Below are positions 2,763-14,958 of a stretch of 64,000 nucleotides of DNA, in pieces. Positions within the stretch are counted from its first letter, which is position 1; each line of letters opens with the position of its first letter. The stretch spans positions 1-64,000 of the forward strand of contig NZ_PVTE01000019.1 of NCBI RefSeq assembly GCF_003002825.1, read 5' to 3'. The notes under the pieces were generated by a model. That model ran no database searches. It was given only the letters and a program-made list of their open reading frames with translations, and had not been told where the DNA came from. A program made the position numbers and the translations under genes. This DNA is from Spirosoma oryzae (GTDB taxonomy: Bacteria; Bacteroidota; Bacteroidia; Cytophagales; Spirosomataceae).

Positions 2763-2767
2763 GAATC

Positions 2768-3202
2768 TTAATAGAAAAGACCGTAGCCAAGACCAAGACT
2801 ACGCCGACCGTTCTGATCCGGACCACAGAAGAAAATAGGTTCTGAGTCGTCCTTGATGACGGTAAGCTGAATCTCCGGGCTGTGAGTTTGAATAAAGTCG
2901 ATGAACAGGTTGGTAATCGATTCTGAATCCATCTCTAGTTTACCATCATCGACGGTTAAGTAGATGGATTCATAGGCTTCGAGTGGTTTGTCGATTCCCA
3001 GCTGACGGAGTTGTTCCTGACTGAGCAGATTGTCTTCGTAGTCTGTACAGGGAAATTCAGTTAGTCCCTGTTTATCCAGTGCTTTCCACATGGCCGCCCG
3101 GACATAATCCCGGTCGTAATTACTAGACAGGTAAACTTGCTGGGTTTTTCCGTGACCATCATCCGAGAAATCACCGATTGTTAAATTAAGCTTGTACGTC
3201 AT
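2768..3202 (-). CDS. Hypothetical protein (144 aa)
   Basis: The product begins MTYKLNLTIGDFSDDGHG, has a central stretch with ESIYLTVDDGKLEMDSES, and ends with PIFFCGPDQNGRRSLGLG, a glycine-rich tail. No known domain is evident. It overlaps the preceding gene by 17 bases, in keeping with translational coupling along the operon. Confidence 0.55.
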   Translation of the reverse strand: MTYKLNLTIGDFSDDGHGKTQQVYLSSNYDRDYVRAAMWKALDKQGLTEFPCTDYEDNLLSQEQLRQLGIDKPLEAYESIYLTVDDGKLEMDSESITNLFIDFIQTHSPEIQLTVIKDDSEPIFFCGPDQNGRRSLGLGYGLFY

Positions 3203-3692: not shown

Positions 3693-3694
3693 AA

Positions 3695-3838
3695 TCAGTC
3701 TTTTGAATCCGAACTTGGCATCAGCAGAAACGTAATGATCCAGATCCACGGAGAAGCATCTTTCCAATAGATCAGGTAAACCGTTCCACCAATGAGAAAC
3801 ATCAGGTAAATCAGTTGAAACAGACTTCGGTAATTCAT
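3695..3838 (-). CDS. Small two-span membrane protein (47 aa)
   Basis: ATG at 3838-3836 overlaps the stop of the upstream membrane-protein gene (ATGA), and TGA at 3697-3695 falls just before the next start at 3692. The product starts MNYRSLFQLIYLMFLIGG and has two hydrophobic segments (about 7-23 and 31-40) separated by YWKDASPW, then a polar tail SSDSKD. Two closely spaced short spans are a small-holin-like layout, but no homology can be claimed. Its exact fit between coupled genes is the main evidence that it is real. Confidence 0.6.
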   Translation of the reverse strand: MNYRSLFQLIYLMFLIGGTVYLIYWKDASPWIWIITFLLMPSSDSKD

Positions 3839-4191
3839 AGATAGTAGAATTCAATGATCCAGTGAAACCAGCCGATCTGCAGTCCGTAAGCCGCCGGGGA
3901 TCGCTGGTAGGTATCGGAAATGACCGAAAAACCAAGTCCCCGTCGGTGGGGAAAGAACCGGATACCGGTCAGGGTCGGAAAGGCCCAGTAGAGCTGGACG
4001 ATCAGACAGATCAAGCCGAAGAAAATCCAGGCCAGAAAATGCAGCCAGTCACCGGTTAACCAGTTCTCCAGCAGCTTGTAACCCAGCGTCAGACTGAGCC
4101 CGTAACAAAGTATAACCCGGTACCGGCCCGCTAGCCAGTACAGAAACACAACCAGATGTAGCATGATGAAAGGGGTCAATGTGCCCAGCAA
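3835..4191 (-). CDS. Integral membrane protein (118 aa)
   Basis: Three hydrophobic segments are visible: TPFIMLHLVVFLYWLAG (6-22), a weaker VILCYGLSLTLGYKLL (26-41) and LHFLAWIFFGLICLIVQLYW (50-69), followed by a polar region containing FFPHRRGLGFSVISDTY. No family is recognised. It overlaps the end of the DNA polymerase gene by 16 bases and the next tiny membrane protein by four, so the two membrane proteins may be co-translated and could work together. Confidence 0.6.
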   Translation of the reverse strand: MLGTLTPFIMLHLVVFLYWLAGRYRVILCYGLSLTLGYKLLENWLTGDWLHFLAWIFFGLICLIVQLYWAFPTLTGIRFFPHRRGLGFSVISDTYQRSPAAYGLQIGWFHWIIEFYYL

Positions 4192-6101
4192 GGAGCCGTC
4201 ATGAGCTCCGATTCCATGCGGATACCGATTAAATACCGGGAGCCGACTTCTTCCATAATCCGCTTGATTTCCAGGCCCAGTTCGGGTTGAGCCTTGGGAA
4301 TCTGAACCAGGTATTCGTCGTGTACCTGAAGTTTAATTTTACAATCCAGGTTATTGGTTCGGAAATACCGATCTAGCTCGATACCGGCTTCTTTAGCCAT
4401 ACTGGCTGCCCCAGCCTGAATCGGAAAATTACAGGCCTGCCGCTCGATCTGGTGGTCTTCCTTGAGCTTTTTGACGTGCTGGTTAAACCACTTGACCCGG
4501 TTGTACTTGGTACCATCCCGAACCGATTTGGTTCGTACCCCTTGCTGCTTAATCCCCTGCTGGTAACGGCTTAGCTCGGGCAGACTGTTGAGAATGTTCT
4601 GGTAGACCCTTTTGGCTGTGGGCATGTCAATATTCAAGGTACCAGCAATACTACCCGGACCCGCCCCATAAAGAACTCCGAACAGAACCGGCTTGTGGTC
4701 ATTCCGATACTTCTTGTTTTCCGACTTGGACACGATCAGATTCGGATTACCCGTAATAATCCGGTAACTACCCTGAGCCAGGTAGGAGTGTAAATCCAGC
4801 CCGTCGGTAAAGGAAGCCATCAGCATGGGATCCTGGGAATTAGAAGCGGCCAGTCGAAGTTCCTGACCCGAAAAGTCACAGTCGACGAACACGTAATCTT
4901 CTGAGTCCGGGACAAAACAGCTCCGGAGTTCATCCAGATTCGGGATATTTTGAAGATTTGGTGAGCCCGAAGACAATCGTCCGGTGTCGGTAAAACACTG
5001 GGAATAACTGGTATGAATCCGACCTGTTACTGGATTGATGAAGGCAAAAAAGTTCTCTCCGTAGGTCGATACCAGTTTGGCCATACCCCGATACTGTAGT
5101 AGTAGTTCCGTGAACCGTCGAAGTTCCGAGTTCGGGTTATCGATCAGATACTGTTGCAGGAGGTCTTCACCAGTCTGAGTAATCTGGGGAGCTCCGCATC
5201 GGTTGTAAATGGCCTGAATCTGCTGGGTGGAGTTCACGTTGAACTTCTCGATAACCCGGCTTTCCGAGATGGTTTCCCGCAGGACGGTTTCCGAGAATAG
5301 ATTCAGCTGACTTTCGGCTTCGTATTTTCCCCGCTTTTTGGGCTTCAGACTGATTTCACTTCCCAACAGATCCGGAAACAGATTGCTTAGCCGTTCGACT
5401 TCTCCCCGGAGCTGGGTCAGTGCTTCATCGGCTTGACGGGCAAACTCCTGACTGGCAACCAACCACTTTTCCCGGTCCAACCGGATACCTTCCAGTTCTA
5501 CCTGACTGATGATGGGCAAGTACTGGTTCTCTAGTTCGATACAGGCTATCAGCTTCCACTTTTCCGCCCGTTCCCGGTGCCGGTCGTACAGATCCGGTAA
5601 ATACCGTAAATCATTTACCAGGTATTCAATCTCTCCGTCTTCGATGGGCTTAGCTTTATCCCGGTTAATAAATGAAGACCGACCAGACTTATCCAGTTTT
5701 ACCCCGAAATGTCGTTCCAGACAGGCATCCAGACTGTGGCTGAGATCCATGCCATTGTAGAGCACCTGAGAAGACAGCATCGTACACCAGATCCGGGATA
5801 GAGCAGTTCGATACCGACAGGCCAGCAGTTTCCAGTCGTAGTTGACGTTGTGAAACACCCAACGGGCTCCCAGGAGTGGTTCCAGAGCCTGCTGGATTTC
5901 GGTTTCTGAATAACTGGTCAGATCCACGATGTAATACTCCTGCCGATCGTAAATACCAAGCAGGTACGGATATAGCCGGTAGGGATCGAGTCCGTCGGCC
6001 TCCAGATCGGCAAACAACTCATCCCGGCCGATCAACTCGCTTAACGTGGACAGAGGAAGGACCGGCCGGGCTAAATCCGTTTGTGAGCTAATGTATTTCA
6101 T
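4176..6101 (-). CDS. Family A DNA polymerase with 3'-5' exonuclease
   Basis: A 641-residue phage-type DNA polymerase. The exonuclease domain has motif I ADLEADG (D32, E34), motif II HNVNYDW (D89) and motif III around YLVND (Y160, D164). The polymerase domain has TGRLSSGSPNLQNIP (373-387), motif A DCDFSGQELR (407-416), the O-helix KPVLFGVLYG (470-479) with phenylalanine at the position linked to discrimination against dideoxynucleotides, and motif C VHDE (593-596). All catalytic carboxylates are present. There is no 5' nuclease domain, so it resembles T7-like replicative polymerases rather than cellular Pol I. It probably replicates the element. No primase or helicase gene is in view. Confidence 0.95.
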   Translation of the reverse strand: MKYISSQTDLARPVLPLSTLSELIGRDELFADLEADGLDPYRLYPYLLGIYDRQEYYIVDLTSYSETEIQQALEPLLGARWVFHNVNYDWKLLACRYRTALSRIWCTMLSSQVLYNGMDLSHSLDACLERHFGVKLDKSGRSSFINRDKAKPIEDGEIEYLVNDLRYLPDLYDRHRERAEKWKLIACIELENQYLPIISQVELEGIRLDREKWLVASQEFARQADEALTQLRGEVERLSNLFPDLLGSEISLKPKKRGKYEAESQLNLFSETVLRETISESRVIEKFNVNSTQQIQAIYNRCGAPQITQTGEDLLQQYLIDNPNSELRRFTELLLQYRGMAKLVSTYGENFFAFINPVTGRIHTSYSQCFTDTGRLSSGSPNLQNIPNLDELRSCFVPDSEDYVFVDCDFSGQELRLAASNSQDPMLMASFTDGLDLHSYLAQGSYRIITGNPNLIVSKSENKKYRNDHKPVLFGVLYGAGPGSIAGTLNIDMPTAKRVYQNILNSLPELSRYQQGIKQQGVRTKSVRDGTKYNRVKWFNQHVKKLKEDHQIERQACNFPIQAGAASMAKEAGIELDRYFRTNNLDCKIKLQVHDEYLVQIPKAQPELGLEIKRIMEEVGSRYLIGIRMESELMTAPCWAH

Positions 6102-6116
6102 AGCTAACGGTATGGT

Positions 6117-6317
6117 CTATACGTTTACTACAGGTAGTAGCAGATCAGGCAGGTGGACGGAATGATTCAGGTAAATCTCCTGCTCAGCAGGTCCCATCTG
6201 GTTAGTCAGCAGCAGGAGTTGTTCGAGCCGGATAGTAGGAGATTCGTCCAGCAGTTCGTGGTAGGCTACGTAGCCCTTGTAGATCCGGTAGAGCCGGATG
6301 ATTTCACCGACTACCAT
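6117..6317 (-). CDS. Hypothetical small protein (66 aa)
   Basis: Its ATG shares a base with the TAA of the 284-residue gene (TAATG), so translation is probably coupled. The protein is largely helical, with LLDESPTIRLEQLLLLTNQ in the middle and a C-terminal LPDLLLPVVNV. It lies directly upstream of the polymerase gene, where accessory replication factors are sometimes found, but no such motif is visible. Confidence 0.55.
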   Translation of the reverse strand: MVVGEIIRLYRIYKGYVAYHELLDESPTIRLEQLLLLTNQMGPAEQEIYLNHSVHLPDLLLPVVNV

Positions 6318-7171
6318 TAATTGAATTTCTGATTGACGACAATCGGATCACTGGCTTCCGGTCCCCAGGCTGTCAGTACGAGATAACCCCCTTTGACTGG
6401 CTGGAGTACAACGGGATCGAGTATTTCCTGGATGACAGCTTTAGGTTGAATCAAACTGAGAAAAAACCCGGTCTTTTTGGTGTTTTCCTGTTTGAAGTCT
6501 TTACTAGGAGCACAAATCTGGAATTGAGCATTAACTGACGAATACCGTACAGTCTGAACTAAATCGTGATCACCAAGCTCAGTATTGATTCGGTCTTTTA
6601 GGAGACGTTCTAATACGTAATGGCTCCCGTACGACCCTGAACCATACTTGGTCAGATCATAACTACCTATTCCCAACTCGTCGTGTTCAATCAAATGATT
6701 GATTTTGTTTAGATAAGCCACCAACTTTTTCATATTAGCTCCTCTACGAGTACCGACTTCATCAATCTGATAAAAAGTAGGTTCATCAGTACGATTCAAT
6801 CGAAATGATTCGATTTCTTTCAGATTTTTCTCTGGCACAAAACCCGTGTACTGTTTGATGGGACCACAAACCAGCTTATACTTTTCACAGATCTGTTCAA
6901 CCTGGGCTTTTGTGATAAATTTTTGATTTGGGTATCGGAGTGAATAATCCTGGATAATCCGGGCCTGTTTAACGGCCTTTTCCCGTTTTTCCAGTTCTTG
7001 CTGACTATCAACAACCTGAGAACTGGACGTGAATCCCAGCTTTTGCAGTCGAGTCACTTTGTCAACTTTTTGCGGGTCCACCCCGTCAATCAGTAATTGG
7101 CTTTCAGCCAGTAACGTGTCACCAGCCGTACGAAAAGCATGGTGGATTGCTTCAATCTCGGGTGAATACAT
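6317..7171 (-). CDS. Conserved phage-type protein of unknown function (284 aa)
   Basis: The N-terminal third is helical and charged (LLAESQLLIDGVDPQKVDKV, then a coiled-coil-like KREKAVKQARII). The middle has CEKYKLVCGPIKQYTGFVPE and KNLKEIESF, and the C-terminal part carries the hydrophobic strand KGGYLVLTAWGPEASDP. I recall proteins with the pattern HAFRTAGDTLLAE...LGFT...KYxLVCGP...GFVPEKNL from Bacteroidota phages and mobile elements, without known function. The gene starts 26 bases after the stop of the 163-residue membrane-protein gene. Confidence 0.65.
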   Translation of the reverse strand: MYSPEIEAIHHAFRTAGDTLLAESQLLIDGVDPQKVDKVTRLQKLGFTSSSQVVDSQQELEKREKAVKQARIIQDYSLRYPNQKFITKAQVEQICEKYKLVCGPIKQYTGFVPEKNLKEIESFRLNRTDEPTFYQIDEVGTRRGANMKKLVAYLNKINHLIEHDELGIGSYDLTKYGSGSYGSHYVLERLLKDRINTELGDHDLVQTVRYSSVNAQFQICAPSKDFKQENTKKTGFFLSLIQPKAVIQEILDPVVLQPVKGGYLVLTAWGPEASDPIVVNQKFN

Positions 7172-7196
7172 ACGAATTGAGGGTTAAAGGGTGTAT

Positions 7197-7688
7197 TTAT
7201 TTCGATTCCAGGAGTTGTTTGACCAGCTGTTCCTTGGGAAGGGCCAGTAATGAATCCTTTTTAGCCTGAGTAGCATTACCCAGCAGATCACCCAGTTCAG
7301 CTTCCCGGGCTGCCTGCTGAATCTGGACCCGGAGAAACCGGGTAATATCGGCCGGCAAGGCCCGGGCATTGGAATCCGACTGGATAAAAGAACCGATATA
7401 ACCACCGGTCACGATCAGGACTGCTTCCTTCCGGGTTGGGGTTCCAATAAACAGGAGCCAGAAGATGGGACAAAGAAACAGCAGGGATCGCTGCCAGAAC
7501 AGAGTATTGGCAAACCAGCCTTCCAAAGTACCTTCTCCACGGCTTTTGTATTTGGAGTAGTCATCAGTGAATAGTAGGACCAGGGATAGCACTACCAAAC
7601 CAATGGTTGATATAATTACCAAGGCTTTAAACAGGGTATTCAACCGGTCGGCAACCGAGAACAAATAAAATAACCAGTACAGGTTCAT
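7197..7688 (-). CDS. Membrane protein with soluble helical tail (163 aa)
   Basis: The N-terminus MNLYWLFYLFSVADRL is followed by ALVIISTIGLVVLSLVLLF (23-41) and SLLFLCPIFWLLFIG (68-82), each a likely span. After PTRKEAVLIVTGGYIGSFI the protein becomes soluble and helical (FLRVQIQQAAREAELGDLL). This layout occurs in Bacteroidota phage proteins of unknown role. It overlaps the 92-residue gene by four bases. It lies a short distance from the glucosaminidase, so a lysis or envelope role is possible but unproven. Confidence 0.6.
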   Translation of the reverse strand: MNLYWLFYLFSVADRLNTLFKALVIISTIGLVVLSLVLLFTDDYSKYKSRGEGTLEGWFANTLFWQRSLLFLCPIFWLLFIGTPTRKEAVLIVTGGYIGSFIQSDSNARALPADITRFLRVQIQQAAREAELGDLLGNATQAKKDSLLALPKEQLVKQLLESK

Positions 7689-7963
7689 TGAAGAAGGGGT
7701 TCGTCAGGGGAAAGAATACGAAGAGCCGTCGAAAGGTACTCCTGGGGAATCTGGACGGTTTTCAGGATCACGGTATCACCCAGGTAGGTCCAGCCCGATC
7801 GGGTCGGGGGTTCAAGCGTGTCACCCATGGGGGAAAGAACCTTGTAGGTTAGTTCCCGGGTGGTCAGATCAATATCCTTGATCCAGATGGAAGCGTAATG
7901 GTCGAGGGGTAATTTGACCCAGTGGACCAGGCAAATAGTTGGATTGTAATCGATTACGGCCAT
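7685..7963 (-). CDS. Hypothetical beta-rich protein (92 aa)
   Basis: The product starts MAVIDYNPTICLVHWVK and alternates hydrophobic and polar residues (LTTRELTYKVLSPMG, then GWTYLGDTVILKTVQIP), suggesting a small beta barrel. There is no recognised family. The start codon lies inside the end of a 28-codon membrane peptide gene, and the stop overlaps the next gene by four bases. Confidence 0.55.
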   Translation of the reverse strand: MAVIDYNPTICLVHWVKLPLDHYASIWIKDIDLTTRELTYKVLSPMGDTLEPPTRSGWTYLGDTVILKTVQIPQEYLSTALRILSPDEPLLQ

Positions 7964-8040
7964 AGGTAGTGGAAGACCGTCAACAGCAGACCATAGAACA
8001 GCAGGTAGAGAAAAAGCCTGCCGTTAGTAACGGGCTTCAT
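7954..8040 (-). CDS. Micro membrane peptide (28 aa)
   Basis: A frame of 28 codons begins with ATG at 8040-8038, inside the end of the 65-residue gene, and ends with TAA at 7956-7954, ten bases into the next gene. The peptide MKPVTNGRLFLYLLFYGLLL continues to HYLWP and is essentially one membrane span after a short polar head. It fills the only gap between two otherwise spaced genes, which argues for a real gene. Length alone keeps confidence low. Confidence 0.4.
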   Translation of the reverse strand: MKPVTNGRLFLYLLFYGLLLTVFHYLWP

Positions 8041-8221
8041 AAGCAGCCAGCAGCTTAGCCAGATCGACCATGAACTGATTCCGGTTCGGATTGGCTACCG
8101 AGATAGCCGTCGAGAACTGAAGTGTCAGTGATCGACGATCTTCGTAATCCCGAAGCTGCTGGGGATAATCCCGGGCCAGTTGTCCTGGATGATGAAGCCC
8201 GGCTGGTGAGGTGACGGTCAT
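8024..8221 (-). CDS. Hypothetical small protein (65 aa)
   Basis: Starts MTVTSPAGLHHPGQLARDY and has a helical C-terminal half FMVDLAKLLAAYEARY. It overlaps the upstream 106-residue gene by four bases and the downstream micro-peptide gene by 17. No family or motif is recognised. Confidence 0.5.
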   Translation of the reverse strand: MTVTSPAGLHHPGQLARDYPQQLRDYEDRRSLTLQFSTAISVANPNRNQFMVDLAKLLAAYEARY

Positions 8222-8538
8222 GATTTTAGGAAAGGATTGTTGGGTGAATTACTGAACTCACAGTCTCTCATCACACTTGAAAAAGAACCGGAGCCGAAAA
8301 TTTCGCTTAATGCTTTAGCTTTAGATTTTGAGCCTGGTATCCAAAACCGTTTAAAAATGATTGGCTCTACTACAGGTTCACCGGTAGACCAAACTAGTTT
8401 TGTTTTTGGTTCAGGGGTTACACTCCAAACATCAAAAGCTTCGGAGTCATCGTGAAGTCCATCTCCGTGGAGAATGTATTTTCCCTCGAATTTGGCTTTG
8501 ACCAGTTTAGCCAGCCGTTTGTTTTCTTCAGTGGTCAT
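8218..8538 (-). CDS. Hypothetical protein (106 aa)
   Basis: The start MTTEENKRLAKLVKAKF is a charged helix, followed by KYILHGDGLHDDSEAFDVW and KRFWIPGSKSKAKALSEIF. No domain is recognised and no membrane segment is present. It overlaps the end of the frameshift extension of the glucosaminidase by 11 bases. DNA in this gene is visibly more AT-rich than in the glucosaminidase upstream. Confidence 0.55.
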   Translation of the reverse strand: MTTEENKRLAKLVKAKFEGKYILHGDGLHDDSEAFDVWSVTPEPKTKLVWSTGEPVVEPIIFKRFWIPGSKSKAKALSEIFGSGSFSSVMRDCEFSNSPNNPFLKS

Positions 8539-9088
8539 ACGTCAGCTCGACTCCGATAAACCGGTTGTTCAGCCAGACGCCGGCTTGCAGGGTGTTCTGG
8601 GTAGCCGTCTGCTGACCGTAGAAAGCCAGATCTCCTTTTTCAAAGAGCTGAACCAAACTCATCCGGGTCGGCCGGTTGATCTGACCGAACAGACTGACCA
8701 GTTCCTTCAGATCTTCCGGAGCGGCAACCGAGACACGGGTAGCCCGACCGAAGATGCGGTCAAGCGTAGTGGACATAGCGTGACTAAACCGGGTGAACTC
8801 GACGGGCTTCCAGACGGCTTCGGTGGATTTAAGGGTAACTGGGTTAATCCAGGTCCGGGGCTTGTCCAAAAATTTCTCCCGCTGGGTACGGAAGTAGGCT
8901 TCCGAGCCAGGTTCGTGTCTGGGGTATTCCTTTTTGGGTTCTTTGGGAATCGAACGGTCAATCGGGGGCCGTTTGTAGGGACCGGCCGATTTGTAGGGGC
9001 TGTGTTTTTTTGGTTTGCCGGCTGTTTCAGTAACCGGGCCAGTTTCTGTCTGTACCGGGGATCCCGGGCGTAGGTTTGGTAAATCCAA
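8528..9088 (-). CDS. Minus-one-frame extension of the glucosaminidase (186-codon frame)
   Basis: The open frame runs from 9088 to 8528 and overlaps the glucosaminidase frame by about 380 bases. Its first 26 codons look like shadow sequence, but from codon 27 (the KKH at the slippery site) onward it reads like a real protein: KEPKKEYPRHEPGSEAYF, a proline-rich linker, then AAPEDLKELVSLFG and a C-terminal TLQAGVWLNNRFIGVELTY. A minus-one slip at 9004-9010 would fuse these 158 residues to the glucosaminidase domain, giving about 293 residues. The alternative is an independent gene starting at ATG 8779 (MSTTLDRIFGRATR), or a one-base sequence error. Confidence 0.6.
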   Translation of the reverse strand: MDLPNLRPGSPVQTETGPVTETAGKPKKHSPYKSAGPYKRPPIDRSIPKEPKKEYPRHEPGSEAYFRTQREKFLDKPRTWINPVTLKSTEAVWKPVEFTRFSHAMSTTLDRIFGRATRVSVAAPEDLKELVSLFGQINRPTRMSLVQLFEKGDLAFYGQQTATQNTLQAGVWLNNRFIGVELTYDH

Positions 9089-9408
9089 TGGGAATAACGG
9101 GAATAAGAGGTGAGACGGTGTTTACGGATAACGGTTTGCTGCCAGCGGGCAAAATGACTGACAGATGATTCAACCGAGCGATAGCCGGCCCATTTACCGG
9201 CCCGGTAATCCGAATAGGCTCCGTGGATGAAACCATAGGGGTTCAGATGTCTTCGGAATAACCGGGATCGACCGTTGGCCGATTCATGAATCATCTGGGC
9301 TACGGTAAGGGCTTTGTAGCGGATAGCCGGGTGAGATTGAACGAGCCGAACGGCTGAATCAAACGGACTTACCAGCTGGAGCAGCAGGGTACAGCAAAGC
9401 AGGAACAA
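8707..9408 (-). CDS. Glucosaminidase-like phage lysin
   Basis: The start is probably TTG at 9408, giving a hydrophobic leader MFLLCCTLLLQLVSPF. Residues about 26-128 match the glucosaminidase (GH73-like) pattern: VAQMIHESANGRSRLF with candidate catalytic E42, YRSVESSVSHFARW, and TYARDPRYRQKLARLL, the usual YATDPxYxxKL end. Such enzymes cut peptidoglycan between sugars and would act as endolysin or exolysin. After codon 133 the frame continues with low-complexity Pro/Asn/Ser sequence that looks out of frame, while the minus-one frame looks authentic. The slippery heptamer A_AAA_AAC lies exactly at codons 133-135 in the correct phase. Confidence 0.75.
   Translation of the reverse strand: MFLLCCTLLLQLVSPFDSAVRLVQSHPAIRYKALTVAQMIHESANGRSRLFRRHLNPYGFIHGAYSDYRAGKWAGYRSVESSVSHFARWQQTVIRKHRLTSYSRYSHWIYQTYARDPRYRQKLARLLKQPANQKNTAPTNRPVPTNGPRLTVRFPKNPKRNTPDTNLARKPTSVPSGRNFWTSPGPGLTQLPLNPPKPSGSPSSSPGLVTLCPLRLTASSVGLPVSRLPLRKI
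8960..9010 (-). promoter_or_regulatory. Candidate minus-one frameshift site with downstream stem
   Basis: On the minus strand the heptamer A AAA AAC occupies 9010-9004, in phase with codons CAA AAA AAC of the glucosaminidase. A slip of one base back enters the frame that ends at 8528. About twelve bases downstream AATCGG (8991-8986) can pair with CCGATT (8965-8960), extended by CCG/CGG with a bulge. The heptamer fits the X_XXY_YYZ rule exactly; the stem is weaker evidence and its spacing is longer than usual. Confidence 0.55.
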
Positions 9409-9517
9409 ATGTAAGGGAGACCGGATCGACGGGGCGTATCTCCAGGGGGAGAAAGGCAGGATACCGGTTCACTGGTGAAGAGTCCAAAGATACGGGGATT
9501 CACCGGAGAAATCAAAA

Positions 9518-9916
9518 TTAGTCCCAAAGCCGGACCCAATACTTGGCAAACAGATACAGTCCTTCCTGCATGTATTCGTCGGCCAGGACATCATGATCTC
9601 TGGAATCCCGGCTGATAACCAGCTTCATCGCTTCAATCATGTGGTCCAGTAGTTTTTCGGTTCCTTCCTCTCCGAGTTCATGGAAGAAAACATGACTGTT
9701 TTTTTTGTAGGTTTTCAGCCGGGGTAGAACAAACTTGGCAACAGTTAGTCCCAGATCCCAGGCTTCGGTATCATCGTAGCCCCGTTTAATCCGCTGGTTC
9801 TGGTACTTTCTCAGACGAGCTTTAGAAAGATCCTGGGAATCATCGATCAACGAAAAGTTGATGTTAGGAATACCCAGATATTTGGGGTCTTTTGGGTCTA
9901 CTACAAAATCAGCCAC
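9518..9916 (-). CDS. Conserved phage-type protein (132 aa)
   Basis: The middle carries YDDTEAWDLGLTVAKFVLPR followed by LKTYKK and a helical C-terminal half (EKLLDHMIEAMKLVIS, then LYLFAKYWVRLWD). I recall the DDTEAWSL...AKFILPRLKxFK pattern from small phage proteins of unknown role. It overlaps the 67-residue gene by eight bases. The 109 bases between it and the glucosaminidase start are the largest gap in the operon and could hold a regulatory site. Confidence 0.6.
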   Translation of the reverse strand: MADFVVDPKDPKYLGIPNINFSLIDDSQDLSKARLRKYQNQRIKRGYDDTEAWDLGLTVAKFVLPRLKTYKKNSHVFFHELGEEGTEKLLDHMIEAMKLVISRDSRDHDVLADEYMQEGLYLFAKYWVRLWD

Positions 9917-10112
9917 AGTTGATACAGTTTAACTTGAGATAATCACTTTTGATCCGCTCCCAGGGTTCCAGGTTCTTCCGGGGCAGGAAGTATTCTAGGT
10001 AAAGCTGATCGGAGAAGGTTCGTTCCAGACCGAAGGTAAGCCACCACTGAACCGATACGTGGTCCACATGGCTCATGATCTGAACAAGGTTTTCAGGGGT
10101 TAGTTTGTACAT
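9909..10112 (-). CDS. Hypothetical small protein (67 aa)
   Basis: Starts MYKLTPENLVQIMSHVDHV, continues with aromatic WWLTFGLERTFSDQLYL and ends KLNCINCG, a CxxC pair that might bind metal. It overlaps the SLOG-like gene by 13 bases and the next gene by eight. No family recognised. Confidence 0.5.
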   Translation of the reverse strand: MYKLTPENLVQIMSHVDHVSVQWWLTFGLERTFSDQLYLEYFLPRKNLEPWERIKSDYLKLNCINCG

Positions 10113-10573
10113 TGGGTGAATAGATCAGTTAAGAATTGGGTGTATCCGTCCATTTCAGCGGGAGTCAGTTTGGTTTCCCGGTTACCAGCTACATTCAGAA
10201 CCCGGATGTTGTTAGCCTGAAGCCAGTCCAGTACTTCCCAGACGTCGATATAACCCAGACTACCGGAGAACAATGGTTTACTAAGTTGTTTGGCTAACCG
10301 GGTAGTCAACTTTGATCCCTGGCTGTTCAAATCTCCCAGTAACAGGGTTCCGTCGGAGTCGATGATGTTCTGCCGGGTCCGGGGTGGATAGTCCGGGGAA
10401 TTCGATTCAACCAGTCCAAATACGGTACCCAGGAGTGGGTTTGGTCCAAATTCAGTCCGAAAACCTTTGGGAGCTGTTCCCCCGGTTTTGAAACCCAAAG
10501 CCTTGGCTACACTGATTCCGATCGTATCGATTCCTGACTGTCCTCCGGAACGAACTTGATCAAGTTTGTACAT
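10100..10573 (-). CDS. SLOG-fold putative molybdenum-carrier-like protein
   Basis: Start at 10573 (MYKLDQVRSGGQSGID) is chosen over the open frame to 10666 because it gives a 14-base overlap like other junctions and begins at the domain edge. Hallmarks of the YpsA/putative molybdenum carrier group are GGQSGID (10-16), APKGFRTE (34-41), a DSDGTLLLGDL strand (72-82) and the C-terminal NVAGNRETK (127-135). SLOG proteins bind nucleotides or nucleotide-derived ligands, and several act in nucleotide signalling and antiphage systems. The true ligand here is unknown; the molybdenum name is an annotation habit. The gene directly follows the thirteen-copy array. Confidence 0.75.
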   Translation of the reverse strand: MYKLDQVRSGGQSGIDTIGISVAKALGFKTGGTAPKGFRTEFGPNPLLGTVFGLVESNSPDYPPRTRQNIIDSDGTLLLGDLNSQGSKLTTRLAKQLSKPLFSGSLGYIDVWEVLDWLQANNIRVLNVAGNRETKLTPAEMDGYTQFLTDLFTQCTN

Positions 10574-10817
10574 TGGTTTGATTGAGTTTAGCCAGAGCTT
10601 CCAGGACTTTTTCCTGGAAGGGATCAACGAGTCTGAAACATTTTTTGTAATAAGCTGGAGAACCAATTGACTGGTTTTTCAAATCCTTCAATATAATCAA
10701 GTCAACACCAGCCATTTGTACCGTGTAAATATCTCCTACTTTAGCAACTGTATTATTCAGATCCGGATCATCCAAACTAATCACCTGAACCCGATCTCCT
10801 ACTTTAAAGTCCTCCAT
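10560..10817 (-). CDS. Array protein 13 (GDWV/PFQxK family)
   Basis: Last copy of the tandem array in transcription order, 85 residues. It opens FKVGDRVQVIS, has the central GDIYTVQ strand shared by the family and ends CFRLVDPFQEKVLEALAKL, the VDPFQ type of tail. Compared with the consensus, the tryptophan of GDWV is arginine. The N-terminal 60 residues are predicted by eye to be a small beta barrel of SH3 type, and the tail an amphipathic helix. Overlaps copy 12 and the SLOG gene by 14 bases each. Function unknown. Confidence 0.75.
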   Translation of the reverse strand: MEDFKVGDRVQVISLDDPDLNNTVAKVGDIYTVQMAGVDLIILKDLKNQSIGSPAYYKKCFRLVDPFQEKVLEALAKLNQTNVQT

Positions 10818-11067
10818 TGGCGTTATTATTTTCCTGGTAGAGCTGATACACTTTAAGCTGAAACGGATCGACTAGCTTGAAGCATTTACTATCAAGTATG
10901 GTATTCCAACCCCTTTTATTTTTCAATTCTTCAATTCGTAAAAACCAACCCTGTCCGGTAACTTCTTTTACCGTATAGATCTGGCTTAAAACAGCTCCCA
11001 TTTTTAGCAAATCTGTGTCAGACAAATCCAGCAACTGTACTTTATCCCCCGGTTTTAATTCGTTCAT
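10804..11067 (-). CDS. Array protein 12 (GDWV/PFQxK family)
   Basis: Start at 11067 (MNELKPGDKVQLLD) matches the family start; the frame is open to 11244 but that part runs over copy 11. Residues near 30 read SQIYTVKEV, and the tail is CFKLVDPFQLKVYQLYQ. Tryptophan of the GDWV box is lysine here, as in copy 13 where it is arginine, so copies 12 and 13 probably share a recent ancestor. The overlap with copy 11 is 26 bases. Confidence 0.75.
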   Translation of the reverse strand: MNELKPGDKVQLLDLSDTDLLKMGAVLSQIYTVKEVTGQGWFLRIEELKNKRGWNTILDSKCFKLVDPFQLKVYQLYQENNNANGGL

Positions 11068-11284
11068 AGGCTTCTCTGACTTTGGTTTGAAAAGGATCTT
11101 CCCGTTGGAAACGACTGTTACGAAACCAGTGTCCCTGACAAGGGTCTGTAGTAGGGGCATGTAATTGGACATAGCCGTCTTCTTCAATACTAACCTGGTA
11201 CCGACTTCCAATACGTATAAACAGGTCAACACTGTCGTTTTCAATACAAATAACCCAATCTCCGACTTTTAATTCTCGATCCAT
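11042..11284 (-). CDS. Array protein 11 (GDWV/PFQxK family)
   Basis: Start at 11284 (MDRELKVGDWVICIE) is preferred over 11290 because it gives the usual family spacing to GDWV. It has IGSRYQVSIEEDGY in the barrel region and a tail FQREDPFQTKVREAYERI of the HPFQTK type otherwise seen in copies 1-6. It is separated from copy 10 by an unrelated gene, so either a block moved or the foreign gene inserted later. Confidence 0.75.
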   Translation of the reverse strand: MDRELKVGDWVICIENDSVDLFIRIGSRYQVSIEEDGYVQLHAPTTDPCQGHWFRNSRFQREDPFQTKVREAYERIKTGG

Positions 11285-11559
11285 TCCCACATTGTCCAGT
11301 GTCCGTTCAATTCAAAAGCATCCGGGTGATTCTCCGCTCCTTCCAGCCAGAATACCTGCATGTGTTTATACCGGCTGGATTTGGTAATCAGATCGGTTTT
11401 GACCTGTTCCAGATCTCCGCCAACACCCCGGCTAAACTTCTCACCTACCGATAGTAACGACCGTACTTTATCGGCTAGGTTACTGGTATTGTTGAAAGCT
11501 GTATACCCAGTAATCCAGAACAGAATTCGTTCGGCGGGTACGTAAAACAGATTATCCAT
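11269..11559 (-). CDS. Unrelated gene inside the array (96 aa)
   Basis: Start at 11559 (MDNLFYVPAERILFWITGY) gives an eight-base overlap with copy 10; the frame is open to 11616. The product has neither the GDWV box nor the PFQxK tail. It shows NTSNLADKVRSLLSVGEKF, a helical RYKHMQVFWLEG region and the C-terminus WTMWEWIEN. I recall proteins of this look in Bacteroidota mobile DNA but no function. Its position between array copies 10 and 11 suggests insertion into, or retention within, the duplicating block. Confidence 0.65.
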   Translation of the reverse strand: MDNLFYVPAERILFWITGYTAFNNTSNLADKVRSLLSVGEKFSRGVGGDLEQVKTDLITKSSRYKHMQVFWLEGAENHPDAFELNGHWTMWEWIEN

Positions 11560-11794
11560 TGTCGAGTAGTTGTTTGGCTTGTAAAACTTTGAGTTGAAAA
11601 GGGTCAATCTTATCAAATAGCTCAGCAGCTAAGATTATAGATTGATTCTTAACCCGAATAAAATTCCCGTCTGACCAAACAACCTGATGACACGAACCAA
11701 TAGTCACTTGAAGCAGGTCAAACAATTCTTTCAACGATTCTTTTCTTGGTTCCCGCTGTCTTATAACCCAATCTCCTGGTTTAAAGCTGTTCAT
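11552..11794 (-). CDS. Array protein 10 (GDWV/PFQxK family)
   Basis: Eighty residues: FKPGDWVIRQ at the start, a longer variable segment KESLKELFDLLQVTIGSC, then FDKIDPFQLKVLQAKQLLD. The tail is nearly identical to that of copy 9 (FQLKVLQAKQ), making these two the closest pair by eye. The variable middle suggests the barrel loops change faster than the tail. Confidence 0.75.
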   Translation of the reverse strand: MNSFKPGDWVIRQREPRKESLKELFDLLQVTIGSCHQVVWSDGNFIRVKNQSIILAAELFDKIDPFQLKVLQAKQLLDNG

Positions 11795-12026
11795 CGAGTT
11801 GCTGTTTTGCCTGTAGTACCTTTAACTGGAATGAATCTACTGGTTTAAACCGTCCACAGCTTATAAAACCTGTTCTAGTTACCGGAGTATAATCTACACC
11901 GTAAACCTTTATCCAATTGTCATCCCTGACATCCCGGATTTTGTAGAGCTTATTTTCAATTAATAGTTGGTCGGCTCGATCATAGTCAACACACACAACC
12001 CAGTCACCTACGTTCAATTGTTGCAT
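11781..12026 (-). CDS. Array protein 9 (GDWV/PFQxK family)
   Basis: Begins MQQLNVGDWVVCVDYD, with ENKLYKIRDV in the barrel and SCGRFKPVDSFQLKVLQAKQ as the tail. The proline of the PFQ box is serine here. It overlaps copy 10 by 14 bases and copy 8 by 23. Confidence 0.75.
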   Translation of the reverse strand: MQQLNVGDWVVCVDYDRADQLLIENKLYKIRDVRDDNWIKVYGVDYTPVTRTGFISCGRFKPVDSFQLKVLQAKQQLDEQL

Positions 12027-12240
12027 GTTGTTTTGCTAGTTGATAAACCTTTAGTTGGAAGGGATCTACCAATTGAAGTCTGGATTCATCTAAACCCTGA
12101 AAAATACCTACTAGATCTACTATTCCGGGAGTTCGGACGTTTACACCTTCAACCTTATAAATCTTCCCGTACTCTAGTCCATAAGCCGGATCAATACAAA
12201 CCACGTAATCACCGGGCTTGAAGGGATTTGTCGAGTTCAT
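12004..12240 (-). CDS. Array protein 8 (GDWV/PFQxK family)
   Basis: Begins MNSTNPFKPGDYVVCID; the tryptophan of GDWV is tyrosine. The barrel contains YGKIYKVEGV and the tail is LQLVDPFQLKVYQLAKQ, close to copy 12. The gene starts 32 bases inside copy 7, the longest overlap in the array, so the C-terminus of copy 7 has been extended at the expense of spacing. Confidence 0.75.
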   Translation of the reverse strand: MNSTNPFKPGDYVVCIDPAYGLEYGKIYKVEGVNVRTPGIVDLVGIFQGLDESRLQLVDPFQLKVYQLAKQHATIERR

Positions 12241-12484
12241 CCTTGATTTGTTTTACTTTGATTTGGAACGGGTCAACGGGAATAAAACAGACAGGGTTTA
12301 TCCAGAATAAATATGGATCATCCACTATTTCGTTATTTTTGGTTCGACTACCTCTTATGTTACCAAGAACTGATACCTCTGTTATCTGAAAAATATCCCC
12401 TACTTCCAGAATGGTTGAATTACAGAATTCGGCATCTACGTTCACACACTGAACCCAGTCTCCCGGTTTAAATTGATGGTTCAT
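12209..12484 (-). CDS. Array protein 7 (GDWV/PFQxK family)
   Basis: At 91 residues the longest copy: FKPGDWVQCVN at the start, VGDIFQITEV in the barrel, an inserted polar loop GSRTKNNEIVDD, and a tail CFIPVDPFQIKVKQIKDEL. It is the first copy in transcription order with the VDPFQ-type tail, marking the boundary between the two tail subgroups. Confidence 0.75.
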   Translation of the reverse strand: MNHQFKPGDWVQCVNVDAEFCNSTILEVGDIFQITEVSVLGNIRGSRTKNNEIVDDPYLFWINPVCFIPVDPFQIKVKQIKDELDKSLQAR

Positions 12485-12713
12485 CGGTTGGTGGTTTAGC
12501 AGGCATCTTATTACGAGCTTCTCTAATTTTTGTTAAAAAAGGATTCTCTCTGACCAGATTTTCATAGGGGAAGTAAAGCCATTCCAAACCAGACAGCTTC
12601 ACAAAAGCCCAGCCCAATCGAGCAATCTGATACGAACGGTTATTATCAAACTTTGGATCATCAACCGACTTAGTAACTCGAACCCAATCCCCTATTTTAA
12701 ATTCGTCATTCAT
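12468..12713 (-). CDS. Array protein 6 (GDWV/PFQxK family)
   Basis: Begins MNDEFKIGDWVRVTKS, has NNRSYQIARLGWAFVKLSG in the barrel and a tail LVRENPFLTKIREARNKM. It shares the WLYFPYENLV / WLIPMKYLT segment just before the tail with copy 5, so 5 and 6 are close relatives. Ends with a proline-rich extension. Confidence 0.75.
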   Translation of the reverse strand: MNDEFKIGDWVRVTKSVDDPKFDNNRSYQIARLGWAFVKLSGLEWLYFPYENLVRENPFLTKIREARNKMPAKPPTDEPSI

Positions 12714-12939
12714 CGGCTTCAGGTTTAGGTAATAGTTGGTCCCGGGTTAGCCGGACCTTGGTTTGGAATGGGTGTTCCTTTGTCAGGTATTTCATAGGAA
12801 TAAGCCACCGTTCCAACCCTTTAACTTGTACAGCATGTAAACCACGGTATATTATTTTGTAAGGCTTGGCAACAAATACCTCGTTAATAGCTCCCGGCTT
12901 AATGAACACCCAGTCTCCTACCTGAAAGTCAGATCTCAT
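12706..12939 (-). CDS. Array protein 5 (GDWV/PFQxK family)
   Basis: Seventy-seven residues opening FQVGDWVFIKPG; barrel segment AKPYKIIYRGLHAVQVKG; tail LTKEHPFQTKVRLTRDQL. Overlaps copy 6 by eight bases and copy 4 by 11. The EHPFQTK tail defines the upstream subgroup. Confidence 0.75.
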   Translation of the reverse strand: MRSDFQVGDWVFIKPGAINEVFVAKPYKIIYRGLHAVQVKGLERWLIPMKYLTKEHPFQTKVRLTRDQLLPKPEADE

Positions 12940-13192
12940 GTTGCTCTTTTATGGTTCGGATTTTGGTTAAAAACGGGTGTTCTTTTTCAAAGTAGTTGGT
13001 ATACATCCAAGGTGAATAACAACGTCTTTCTTCAGTAGTGAAATTCAACTTTACCCAGTTGTAAGTACCGTCGAAATCGGTATCCAATATCTGGTACCTT
13101 TCTCCTTTGGTCAGTTGCTTGAAAACCTTATCGAGATGGGTTATATCATCCAGAACTACTACCCAGTCTCCAACGGCAAACGGATGATTCAT
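12929..13192 (-). CDS. Array protein 4 (GDWV/PFQxK family)
   Basis: Opens MNHPFAVGDWVVVLDD, has a longer first loop (ITHLDKVFKQLTKGERYQIL) and a tail YFEKEHPFLTKIRTIKEQ. Joined to copy 3 by a four-base ATGA overlap, the only junction between array copies that departs from the usual frame relation. Confidence 0.75.
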   Translation of the reverse strand: MNHPFAVGDWVVVLDDITHLDKVFKQLTKGERYQILDTDFDGTYNWVKLNFTTEERRCYSPWMYTNYFEKEHPFLTKIRTIKEQHEI

Positions 13193-13419
13193 GGTTTGGA
13201 TAAGTTAGCGTCCCGGATCTGACGAACTTTAGTCTGGAAGGGATCCTCTTTTTCAAATCGGATATAACTCATACCCATATCACTGTTTTCTATAACAATT
13301 GGATTACCATAAGCAGATATTCCGTATACTTTGTAAAGTTTACCAATTGTTAAATTTTCCTCTTGACCCTGATTTCTAATACAAACAATCCAATCCCCTA
13401 CTTTAAAGTCATGCTTCAT
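13189..13419 (-). CDS. Array protein 3 (GDWV/PFQxK family)
   Basis: Begins MKHDFKVGDWIVCIRNQ, barrel segment TIGKLYKVYGISAYGNP, tail IRFEKEDPFQTKVRQIRD. A compact copy close to the family consensus, useful as a query for remote homology searches. Confidence 0.75.
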   Translation of the reverse strand: MKHDFKVGDWIVCIRNQGQEENLTIGKLYKVYGISAYGNPIVIENSDMGMSYIRFEKEDPFQTKVRQIRDANLSKP

Positions 13420-13633
13420 GTTGTAATTTGGTGGTTAGTATTTTGGCTCGGAAGAGATCGAGTGGTTCGAATCGGGTAGACCAGAAAAGTTCGGGATTAC
13501 CGGTTATTGTCAGTTTTTCTCCGTCGTAAAATACAGCTGAAACCTGATATATTTTATCCATTTCCAGCTCCTCTTCCCTATCAGAATTATCCCGACAGAT
13601 TACCCAGTCATTTTCCTTTATCACGTCTTTCAA
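13409..13633 (-). CDS. Array protein 2, most diverged copy
   Basis: Seventy-four residues. The GDWV glycine is replaced (ENDWVICRDN), and the tail reads FEPLDLFRAKILTTKLQ, losing the PFQ core while keeping the lysine position. The barrel segment MDKIYQVSAVFYDG is intact. The frame is fully open and coupled to both neighbours, so it is a diverged gene rather than a pseudogene. Confidence 0.7.
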   Translation of the reverse strand: MKDVIKENDWVICRDNSDREEELEMDKIYQVSAVFYDGEKLTITGNPELFWSTRFEPLDLFRAKILTTKLQHEA

Positions 13634-13850
13634 GTTTAGCTTTAGCTTCTCGGATCTTAGTCTGGAACGGATGTTCGGGTTGAAATCGATTGACAGTAAA
13701 TTCTCCCCTTACTCCTTTAAGTTCACACATTTGAAATGTGTAACCATGTATTGCTTTAACCTGGTAGGATTTACCGTTTTCCAGGAGACTGGAATAACCT
13801 ATAGTATTAATACAGATTACCCAGTCTCCCTGTTTAAAGTTGGCTACCAT
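13608..13850 (-). CDS. Array protein 1 (GDWV/PFQxK family)
   Basis: First copy in transcription order. Its ATG shares one base with the TAA of the endonuclease gene (TAATG). Opens MVANFKQGDWVICINT; barrel segment NGKSYQVKAI; tail FQPEHPFQTKIREAKAKL followed by a basic end ERRDKGK. Like all copies it lacks a signal peptide and membrane span, so it should be cytoplasmic. Confidence 0.75.
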   Translation of the reverse strand: MVANFKQGDWVICINTIGYSSLLENGKSYQVKAIHGYTFQMCELKGVRGEFTVNRFQPEHPFQTKIREAKAKLERRDKGK

Positions 13851-14545
13851 TAAGCAGCTTGATTGAAGTCTTCAGGGAATCGATCCCGGTTCAACTGGGC
13901 AAACTCACCCCGAAGTTCCAGACATTTAGTATCGTAGGCAATGGCAGCCAGCTTCTCAGTCGGCTGAGTCGGTAGGATATACCGTTTTCCCTCGTGAGAA
14001 ATAGCGGCCCGCCAGCCTTTCCCCGTATGAGCCAGGTTAACCCCCAGGTATTTGGAGTTACCGGCTTTCCGAGGAGTCGTATTCCACTGGTTCTGAGACC
14101 GGGTAACCCAGCGGCAGTTTTCTCTGCTGTAGGGACCCTTGGAGTCCCGCCGGTCGATCTGCAGATTCTCCCCGTAGCCCGGCAGCATATCCTGGTAGAA
14201 TGTGTCGAACGTATGCCATTCCTCGGCCACGGTAATTCCCTTACCCCCATACCGGCCGTAATCCTTGTTTCCGGGGTTGTAACACCGCCGTTTCATTTCT
14301 TTCCAGACGTCGTAGAGCTTCTGCCGATCGGTTCTGGGCGGGTTCTTCCCATTACAGCCACAGGAAAGCAGTAGGCCGTTACGGAGTCGGTAGGTTTCGG
14401 TTTCCAGTTGTTTTCCACAGATACACTGGCAGTGGTAGAAGACTTTGGGAGATTTACTCTTACCGGATTTGGGATACCGGAGTTCGACTGACAGAATCGT
14501 CAGATCAGCTACCTGTTCACCAGGAGCATAGGCAATATGAGCCAT
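13850..14545 (-). CDS. HNH endonuclease with zinc ribbon and AP2 domain
   Basis: First gene of the mobile-element operon, 231 residues. Residues 39-64 hold a zinc-ribbon-like set of cysteines (CQCICG and SCGC). Residues 76-156 match the HNH proteins of the form LYxxWKxMKxRCYNPxNKDYxxYGGKGI, with DRRDSKGPYSRENCRWV carrying the core Asp and Asn. Residues about 165-215 (KYLGVNLAHTGKGWRAAI) are an AP2-like DNA-binding domain, a combination typical of phage homing endonucleases. It may be a selfish endonuclease or a nicking enzyme used by the element. Translation of the array probably depends on it through the TAATG junction. Confidence 0.85.
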   Translation of the reverse strand: MAHIAYAPGEQVADLTILSVELRYPKSGKSKSPKVFYHCQCICGKQLETETYRLRNGLLLSCGCNGKNPPRTDRQKLYDVWKEMKRRCYNPGNKDYGRYGGKGITVAEEWHTFDTFYQDMLPGYGENLQIDRRDSKGPYSRENCRWVTRSQNQWNTTPRKAGNSKYLGVNLAHTGKGWRAAISHEGKRYILPTQPTEKLAAIAYDTKCLELRGEFAQLNRDRFPEDFNQAA

Positions 14546-14633
14546 CAGGAAATAGCAGAAAAAGACCAGTCAAGAGCTGGCAGGGCCGTGAAGAAGAAAG
14601 GACGGGGACAGAATCCGGGCCGGATGGAGTCCC

Positions 14634-14654
14634 AAAAAAGGGGTAGAGCTACCC
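14634..14654 (-). terminator. Hairpin with U run in the operon leader
   Basis: On the minus strand GGGTA-GCTC-TACCC is followed by CCTTTTTT, the form of a weak intrinsic terminator. It lies about 90 bases before the endonuclease start and about 45 bases after the candidate promoter box, so it could attenuate the operon or end a short leader RNA. Confidence 0.45.
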
Positions 14655-14697
14655 GAAAAATAAAGAAGAAGTAGAGGTCCCGCTGGGATTTCTATAC

Positions 14698-14705
14698 CAA
14701 AGATA
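14698..14705 (-). promoter_or_regulatory. Candidate promoter -7 box for the element operon
   Basis: The minus strand reads TATCTTTG, a match to the Bacteroidota -7 consensus TAnnTTTG. It is the only such box seen in the gap upstream of the operon. A clear TTTG at -33 is not visible, so support comes from the box and position only. Confidence 0.4.
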
Positions 14706-14775
14706 GCAAATTTACCGGGAAACTGGTTGTTCTAAAGATGACCGTTTACTAACAATCAGAGCAGATAAAGCAAGA

Positions 14776-14846
14776 CCCTCGTAGCCAAAAACCGACCCAT
14801 GACAGACCCGTAGTACAGGTTGGTCAGTCGGTTAAGGCCACGAGGG
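14776..14846. repeat. 71-base imperfect palindrome beside tRNA-Arg
   Basis: CCCTCGTAGCC...AACCGAC (14776-14796) is mirrored by GTCGGTT..GGCCACGAGGG (14827-14846), with about 18 of 20 positions pairing. It lies 40 bases beyond the 3' end of the tRNA, towards the element. It could be the tRNA transcript terminator or a recombinase arm site. No T run follows it on the tRNA strand. Confidence 0.55.
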
Positions 14847-14884
14847 CAGTCTTTGTCAGCTGATTGACAGCTAGTTAGGCGTTG

Positions 14885-14958
14885 TGACCCCGAAGCGATT
14901 CGAACGCTTGACCGTCTGCTTAGAAGGCAGATGCTCTATCCAGCTGAGCTACGGGACC
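14885..14958 (-). tRNA. tRNA-Arg (anticodon TCT)
   Basis: The minus strand folds as a full cloverleaf: acceptor GGTCCCG with CGGGGTC (two G-U pairs), T8 A9, D stem GCTC/GAGC, anticodon stem-loop CTGCC-TTCTAAG-... with anticodon TCT, T arm AAGCG-TTCGAAT-CGCTT and discriminator A. CCA is not encoded. The 3' end faces the phage-like block, which is the usual orientation for integration into a tRNA gene. Confidence 0.95.

What the first reader, a model, noticed from the sequence alone, without database searches (positions are those of the whole stretch)
10560..13850. Thirteen tandem diverged paralogous mini-genes in a phage-like operon
Seen in sequence: thirteen consecutive minus-strand genes of 74-91 codons, all with an N-terminal FKxGDWVxC box (glycine, aspartate and hydrophobic strand kept), a central YxV/IxxV strand and a C-terminal [DH]PFQxK[VI] tail. 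Identity between copies is low outside these boxes, so they are old or fast-evolving. Separate genes rather than one repeat protein implies separate small proteins, perhaps a combinatorial set that share a partner through the constant tail and differ in ligand through the barrel loops. This layout recalls anti-defence or receptor-diversifying arrays, but I know of no described system with these features.
Basis: partly seen in the sequence, partly recalled or inferred. Interest (0 to 1): 0.85.

Follow-up and report, generated by a model that had tools for sequence, protein, structure and literature searches.

The report
29 tandem SH3-like mini-genes in prophage
A crAss-like phage lying dormant in a bacterium carries, at its two ends, arrays of 13 and 16 small related but very different genes that appear to make the same barrel-plus-helix protein; such a large gene family is unusual among its relatives, and its job is unknown but may be to handle the host.

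Summary
The 13 mini-genes (10560-13850, minus strand) belong to a 29-member family; 16 more copies lie on contig C9 beside a tyrosine integrase. Two att cores, one in an intact tRNA-Arg (window 14881-14929) and one at C9:108030, and collinearity with a congener's prophage, make C9:108030-228862 plus window 1-14929 one temperate crAss-like prophage of about 136 kb (contig join inferred), with an array at each end. Each copy scores 36-90 bits against a profile of the other 28, yet mean pairwise identity is 27%. AlphaFold2 gives the same SH3-like barrel plus C-terminal helix for the two copies modelled. Loops are about 13% identical, the N-box 47%, the tail 56%. The tail is not constant: residues 59/64/67 form two exclusive codes (E/T/R in 12 copies; I, L or V at 59 without T or R in 17). 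A collinear Spirosoma terrae prophage lacks the family; of 18 other related phage records one matched, weakly. The nearest full-length homologues found are chromosomal genes of another Bacteroidota genus. Best guess: an old, selected host-interaction or counter-defence multigene family. Function is untested.

The parts
13608..13850 (-). mini-gene B01, 80 aa, tail class T
13409..13633 (-). mini-gene B02, 74 aa, TTG start, divergent tail (DLFRAKI), class L
13189..13419 (-). mini-gene B03, 76 aa, class T
12929..13192 (-). mini-gene B04, 87 aa, class T
12706..12939 (-). mini-gene B05, 77 aa, class T
12468..12713 (-). mini-gene B06, 81 aa, class T
12209..12484 (-). mini-gene B07, 91 aa, class L
12004..12240 (-). 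mini-gene B08, 78 aa, class L
11781..12026 (-). mini-gene B09, 81 aa, class L
11552..11794 (-). mini-gene B10, 80 aa, class L
11269..11616 (-). unrelated 115-aa ORF interleaved in the array; no Pfam or PHROG match
11042..11290 (-). mini-gene B11, 82 aa, GTG start, class T
10804..11067 (-). mini-gene B12, 87 aa from the internal ATG (the longer ORF runs to 11244), class L
10560..10817 (-). mini-gene B13, 85 aa, class L
10100..10666 (-). downstream gene: circularly permuted YpsA SLOG family (PF12694, 3.9e-28); as called from its TTG it overlaps B13
13850..14545 (-). first gene before the array: 231-aa protein, weak homing-endonuclease profile match (E 0.0048), no Pfam match
14881..14929 (+). att core (49 bp, second copy at C9:108030-108078), inside the 3' part of the tRNA gene
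14884..14958 (-). intact tRNA-Arg (tct), inferred integration target; host DNA to the right (inferred from GC content and genes)
4176..6101 (-). phage DNA polymerase A, 58% identical to its S. terrae prophage counterpart; ties window 1-14929 to the prophage

Best explanation
SHOWN: a 29-member family of 74-105-aa proteins in two arrays of mostly overlapping genes (13 + 16), with an SH3-like barrel plus C-terminal helix predicted for both members modelled. The arrays lie beside the two att sites of what is best read as one temperate crAss-like prophage, so in the excised circle they would flank attP and the integrase. The family is old, all 29 copies are open, and protein change is below saturation while synonymous sites are saturated. 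A collinear congeneric prophage has other small genes at the same places. INFERRED: tandem duplication in an accessory, att-flanking region built a host-interaction (most likely counter-defence or host-takeover) repertoire. Each barrel would bind a different host protein or nucleic acid through its variable-length loops, while the conserved tail helix docks on a shared partner or on another copy through one of two interface codes (E59/T64/R67, or hydrophobic 59 without T64 or R67). Duplication would first raise dosage, and divergence would then track changing host targets.
For: Copies and fold. One element: a 30-bp part of the att core, allowing 3 mismatches, occurs only twice in the genome, within a 49-bp identity; the S. 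terrae prophage has counterparts of C9 genes and of the window's PolA on one contig in nearly one order; one integrase. crAss-like kinship. Selection: 29 of 29 ORFs open; mean pS 0.77 against mean pN 0.52 over all pairs. Loops 13-14% against N-box 47% and tail 56% identity; loop regions 8-20 and 16-38 residues. Two tail codes: E59 against T64 and against R67, 12/0/0/17 each; the three pairs among 59, 64 and 67 are the top APC pairs, z 7.2-7.4 against 4.95 for the next. Accessory position: family not found in the S. terrae prophage. Precedent that phages amplify an 85-aa counter-defence gene in tandem: T4 tifA (PMC9391042, passages read).
Against: Nothing ties any copy to a defence or a host target: 1 of 29 copies (B01) was tried against PADLOC without a match. 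The two tail codes could be inheritance rather than two partners: on the barrel tree the class needs 6 changes against 9.4-9.5 for shuffles, so it is clustered (8-12 of 500 shuffles as low), and the test against one clade is only p-AU 0.031 and was chosen after seeing the classes. The T-before-L order is significant in array A (p 0.0075) but not in array B (p 0.10). No promoter signal above chance was found at the array. Purifying rather than diversifying selection dominates. Expression, dimerisation and binding are untested. The contig join C9-C19 is inferred, not sequenced.
Confidence: 0.4

Rival explanations
1. The copies are subunits of one heteromeric assembly (ring, filament or nucleic-acid coat). 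The conserved helix tails drive assembly, perhaps T with L class, and the barrels bind DNA or RNA in a KOW/Tudor-like way.
For: SH3-like/KOW-like fold (weak matches only); two exclusive tail codes, 12 and 17 copies, both present in both arrays; overlapping genes favour matched output.
Against: Loop lengths vary widely; a close relative phage lacks the family; no PDB match at E 0.001 or better.
Confidence: 0.2
2. The arrays are largely non-adaptive: a small accessory gene was tandem-duplicated by recombination near att and most copies are tolerated, with purifying selection only against misfolding.
For: Other small paralogous families also occur in this prophage (sizes 7, 3, 2, 2, 2), and the S. 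terrae prophage has a tandem three-copy family on its array-B side.
Against: 29 of 29 ORFs stay open at saturated synonymous divergence with core and tail kept; no long near-identical DNA repeats mark recent duplication.
Confidence: 0.2
3. Lysogenic-conversion or superinfection-exclusion set: the proteins act in the lysogen against other phages rather than on entry.
For: Both arrays sit near att, a common place for lysogen-expressed cargo (general knowledge, recalled); homologues in one other genus are chromosomal genes.
Against: No defence-family match (B01 only); by eye no membrane or secretion pattern in the translations (not tested with a program).
Confidence: 0.15
4. Two separate elements, not one prophage, each carry an array.
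For: The two arrays are on different contigs and no overlap of the contig ends was found.
Against: Only two att cores in the genome, same orientation, one in an intact tRNA; PolA of the window and the genes at the end of C9 have neighbouring counterparts in S. terrae; only one integrase among the 205 ORFs of both parts.
Confidence: 0.05

Closest known systems
Uncharacterised small SH3-like phage proteins (PHROGs 4927, 15694, 31982 and others; N-terminal barrels of some DUF3310 and diphosphohydrolase-like proteins)
   Same: Barrel fold: 6 BFVD models at E 0.001 or better; single-member PHROG matches down to 2.6e-6.
   Different: No PHROG matched more than 2 of 29 members at 0.01; whether those families carry the PFQxK helix tail or form arrays was not tested; most have no known function.
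Chromosomal 94-103-aa proteins of one Bacteroidota genus (G653, G1045), two of them adjacent genes in G653
   Same: Full-length homology, barrel plus helix (hhalign probability 97.3%, E 2.3e-11); HMM E 2.6e-10.
   Different: 3 and 2 copies per genome, among what look like chromosomal genes, in 2 of 120 genomes of that family; function unknown.
T4 dmd-tifA and neighbouring anti-toxin genes (PMC9391042, passages)
   Same: Small accessory phage proteins; tandem amplification of an 85-aa gene gives counter-defence dosage.
   Different: T4 amplification is experimental and recent; here copies average 27% identity. No sequence link was tested.
Terminal multigene families of large eukaryotic DNA viruses (recalled, no call)
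   Same: Diverged tandem paralogues near genome ends serving host interaction.
   Different: Unrelated viruses, proteins and replication; not compared here.
Crassvirales, epsilon-like phages (csAssE-Sib, phi17:2)
   Same: Portal, terminase and (csAssE-Sib) major capsid and neighbouring structural genes homologous and in order.
   Different: Integration at tRNA-Arg with an integrase; mini-gene family not found in the csAssE-Sib, phi17:2 and Lbo-JY46 records.

Membership tests
Crassvirales (crAss-like phage) | Homologous portal, TerL and MCP in conserved order | tested here: met
   Against csAssE-Sib: portal 28%, TerL 27%, annotated MCP 25% identical, collinear; TerL 30% and portal 25-26% to phi17:2
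Crassvirales (crAss-like phage) | IHF homologue and the conserved uncharacterised genes 74/75 named in PMC7886860 | not tested
   Feature taken from passages of PMC7886860
Temperate integrated phage | Tyrosine integrase plus att direct repeats at a tRNA gene | tested here: met
   Integrase, 49-bp core, tRNA-Arg; congener likewise with an 82-bp core and an integrase; excision itself untested
SH3-like barrel proteins | Five-strand small barrel | tested here: met
   AlphaFold2 mean pLDDT 90.9 and 85.9 for two of 29 members, five strands in the same order; PDB matches only weak, best E 0.067
PHROG 4927 / 15694 / 31982 | Members match the family profile as a set | tested here: not met
   1-2 of 29 members match any one PHROG at 0.01
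Proteins of defence systems in PADLOC-DB 2.0.0 | Profile match | tested here: inconclusive
   1 of 29 copies was scanned (B01), no match at 0.01
Counter-defence (anti-defence) protein | Blocks a host defence | not testable with these tools
   No assay; no dedicated anti-defence library on hand
Heteromeric assembly subunits | Copies bind each other | not testable with these tools

The most novel reading that the evidence does not exclude
A phage-encoded combinatorial adaptor set: 29 barrel proteins that differ in the ligand-binding loops and plug, through one of two exclusive tail codes (E59/T64/R67, or hydrophobic 59 without T64 or R67), into two partner surfaces or into each other, giving the phage an interchangeable repertoire against host targets, held at both sides of attP.
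Probability: 0.2. Interest if true: 0.85.

Novelty: new variant of a known kind. Interest (0 to 1): 0.6.

Why it matters
Of nine crAss-like genomes or parts of genomes compared by one method, the eight others have no paralogous family above 6 members, while this one has 29 copies of one family (25 of them picked by that method). It offers a natural library of one scaffold with a two-state tail for studying how phages diversify host-directed proteins. It also documents two prophages of about 136 and 144 kb with integrase and att repeats in a phage order for which the papers seen here report incomplete prophages (PMC11054128, passages) or only suggest them (PMC7886860, passages).

Tried and rejected
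Pfam and PHROGs for the 29 copies, NCBIfam for 2 of them: no set-wide family. PDB sequence search with the 29-row profile: best E 0.31, a ribosomal S17 stretch, not meaningful. tblastn of one copy in phages: none at 0.01; of seven copies joined: 4 phage records, best E 0.6, and no plasmid record at E 5 or better. Viral-contig scans with a single copy or subset alignments found only the same prophage, IMGVR_UViG_2728369482_000003. The idea that the gene next to the S. terrae integrase is a single-copy ancestor: not supported, hhalign probability 0.5%. Recent amplification: not supported, no long near-identical DNA repeats. dN/dS: saturated. Covariation C13-C55: p 0.25, dropped. Structural look-up by VIA-align: library absent. 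Sigma-70-like and Bacteroidota-type promoter patterns: not above chance at the array.

Limits: one search scored at most 24 candidates per genome, at most 13. cluster 25 of the 29 copies, because the ORF picker dropped four overlapping ones. In one search the virus records were read in pieces of up to 20 kb, so ORFs across piece borders are lost; phi17:2 was compared only in part (99 of 145 kb); the IMG/VR records may be fragments. In one search Lbo-JY46, csAssE-Sib and phi17:2 were represented by the fetched pieces only. The genome-contig scan and the viral-contig scan for relatives used the portal, not the mini-genes. Paper searches were judged from titles and abstract starts of the rows listed.
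Full report
CHECK OF THE OBSERVATION. Six-frame ORFs give thirteen minus-strand genes at 10560-13850 with the stated boxes. An unrelated 115-aa ORF (11269-11616) is interleaved. Alignment of the thirteen: D9, F62 and K65 invariant, mean column identity 34%. The same genome holds a second array: single-copy and profile searches list C9:109472-113735, and ORFs there give 16 copies at C9:109460-113756. Leave-one-out HMMs: each of the 29 copies scores 36.4-89.6 bits; 50 shuffles per copy reach at most 12.8 and the 228 decoy ORFs at most 6.7. So the family is real.

WHERE IT LIES. The phage-like, lower-GC part of the window ends at an intact tRNA-Arg (14884-14958). A 30-bp stretch of that tRNA, allowing 3 mismatches, occurs once more in the genome; the identity extends to 49 bp, C9:108030-108078 and window 14881-14929, same orientation. 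At C9 a tyrosine integrase lies next to it. From there C9 carries phage genes to near its end at 228862: terminase, portal, a DnaB-like helicase. The C9 part is 120.8 kb and the C19 part 14.9 kb. A congener, G033, carries a nearly collinear prophage on one contig between two tRNA-Arg copies (82-bp repeat, C33:414985-559521). Its polymerase gene (58% identical to window 4176-6101, the only window gene with a match there) is followed 3.6 kb on by the counterpart of the last C9 gene, which supports joining C9 to C19; the contig ends themselves share no overlap. A contig of the same length with the same portal is named Spirosoma terrae KCTC 52035, so the window's genus is Spirosoma by inference. 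The portal's best matches are Leptolyngbya phage Lbo-JY46 (37%), csAssE-Sib (28%) and Cellulophaga phi17:2 (26%), then gut crAss phages. TerL, MCP and four further proteins of the structural block match csAssE-Sib in the same order. This is a crAss-like prophage. In the circle the two arrays would lie on either side of attP and the integrase.

THE FAMILY. Mean pairwise identity of the 29 copies is 27%, minimum 13%. Arrays are not separate clades: holding array A together is rejected on the barrel tree (p-AU 0.0019), so duplications predate the present split or copies moved between arrays. Neighbours are more alike than random in array B (p 0.018) but not in array A (p 0.19); the best array-A partners of the 13 B copies follow the array order (rho 0.63, p 0.02, points not independent). 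Synonymous differences are saturated (mean pS 0.77), while pN averages 0.52: old, and under constraint. No long near-identical DNA repeats remain. 25 of 27 junctions overlap by 4-32 nt.

STRUCTURE. AlphaFold2 on the 29-row alignment gives mean pLDDT 90.9 and pTM 0.74 for copy B01: strands 10-13, 28-36, 40-44, 50-52, 56-58, helix 61-78. The divergent copy A04 gives the same order of elements at pLDDT 85.9. The best viral matches by Foldseek are phage proteins mostly of unknown function, some of them longer; PDB matches are weak. Identity by region: N-box 47%, first loop 13%, strand-3/4 region 14%, tail 56%; the two loop regions vary from 8 to 20 and from 16 to 38 residues.

TWO TAIL CODES. E59 occurs with T64 and R67 in 12 copies, and I, L or V at 59 occurs without T64 or R67 in 17; there are no mixed copies (Fisher p 1.9e-8 for 59-64 and for 59-67). 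The three pairs among these columns are the strongest of all column pairs tested after APC correction (z 7.2-7.4; next 4.95). On a tree of the barrels alone the classes need 6 changes (shuffles 9.4-9.5), and one clade of class T is mildly rejected (p-AU 0.031). Because the class was defined after looking and the tree is poorly resolved, shared inheritance remains possible. In array A the T class comes before the L class in transcription order (p 0.0075); in array B the trend is not significant (p 0.10).

DISTRIBUTION. Profiles of the family found it in 1 of 36 genomes of the genus, 1 of 222 of the family, 1 of 390 of an order sample and 2 of 395 of a phylum sample, the window's own genome being one each time. 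The other, G653, has three copies among chromosomal-looking genes, two of them adjacent, full-length homologues; another species of its genus has two (2 of 120 genomes). Of 20 related phage records searched, one is the own prophage and one (G534) is probably the S. terrae prophage, without match; of the 18 others, 17 had no match at E 1 and G539 matched weakly inside a 785-aa protein. By one paralogue count the largest family in each of eight relatives is 2-6 members, against 25 picked of 29 here. In the S. terrae prophage the two places hold other small genes, with one three-copy family on the array-B side.

NEIGHBOURS. Downstream of array B is a cpYpsA SLOG protein (PF12694, 3.9e-28), and beyond array A a HAD_SAK_2 protein (5.6e-25). 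SLOG proteins are thought to bind nucleotide-derived ligands (recalled); this is suggestive company for counter-defence but no test. A gene at C9:118729-119370 carries a barrel like these fused to a different C-terminal domain (profile match E 7.6e-8).

MECHANISM. What is shown stops at predicted fold, constraint, layout and the two codes. The adaptor and counter-defence reading is inference from the accessory position, the loop variability, the conserved tail and the T4 tifA precedent, in which tandem amplification of an 85-aa gene overcame a defence (PMC9391042, passages). I give it 0.4, against 0.2 for a heteromeric assembly, 0.2 for mainly non-adaptive duplication, 0.15 for lysogenic conversion and 0.05 for two separate elements.

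LITERATURE. PMC11054128 (passages) reports two incomplete epsilon crAss-like prophages in Parabacteroides. PMC7886860 (passages) only suggests crAss-like prophages and mentions tandem duplication of gene 74 in two groups. PMC12629997 (passages) uses Crassvirales as reference genomes; the passages shown mention no induced member. PMC11323111 (passages) does not treat anti-defence small proteins. The rows listed by searches named no paper on such arrays, judged by title and abstract start; other papers were seen as listings only.

Noticed in passing
L078-L085 (G033:C33:414985-559521): Complete-looking 144-kb crAss-like prophage in Spirosoma terrae between two tRNA-Arg(acg) copies (82-bp repeat), nearly collinear with the window's prophage.
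   Followed up: yes
C9:115233-115937, 210242-211635, 220794-221322: A second family of 7 small paralogues in the same prophage, three of them in tandem near array A.
   Followed up: no
L009:17032-18371: Three tandem paralogues; the first in transcription order (213 aa) fuses a barrel like the mini-genes' to a different C-terminal domain.
   Followed up: partly
L165:9520-10201 and L168:9824-10135 (G653): Full-length homologues in another Bacteroidota genus, one near genes that look like prs, L25 and pth (names judged from translations, not searched).
   Followed up: partly
L155:13499-15856 (G539): 785-aa protein of a related phage record with several weak matches to the mini-gene profile, as if barrels were fused in one chain.
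   Followed up: partly
window 10100-10666: cpYpsA-type SLOG protein directly downstream of array B.
   Followed up: no
window 1967-2455: Protein 42% identical to the macro-domain gene gp002 of Cellulophaga phage phi17:2 and weakly like DarG (E 7.8e-5).
   Followed up: no
window 565-837: Another possible SH3-like small protein (CarS-type SH3_18, E 0.0028, below cut-off).
   Followed up: no
L044:5043-7166: Tail-fibre-like protein with GDSL lipase and CBM5/12 domains.
   Followed up: no
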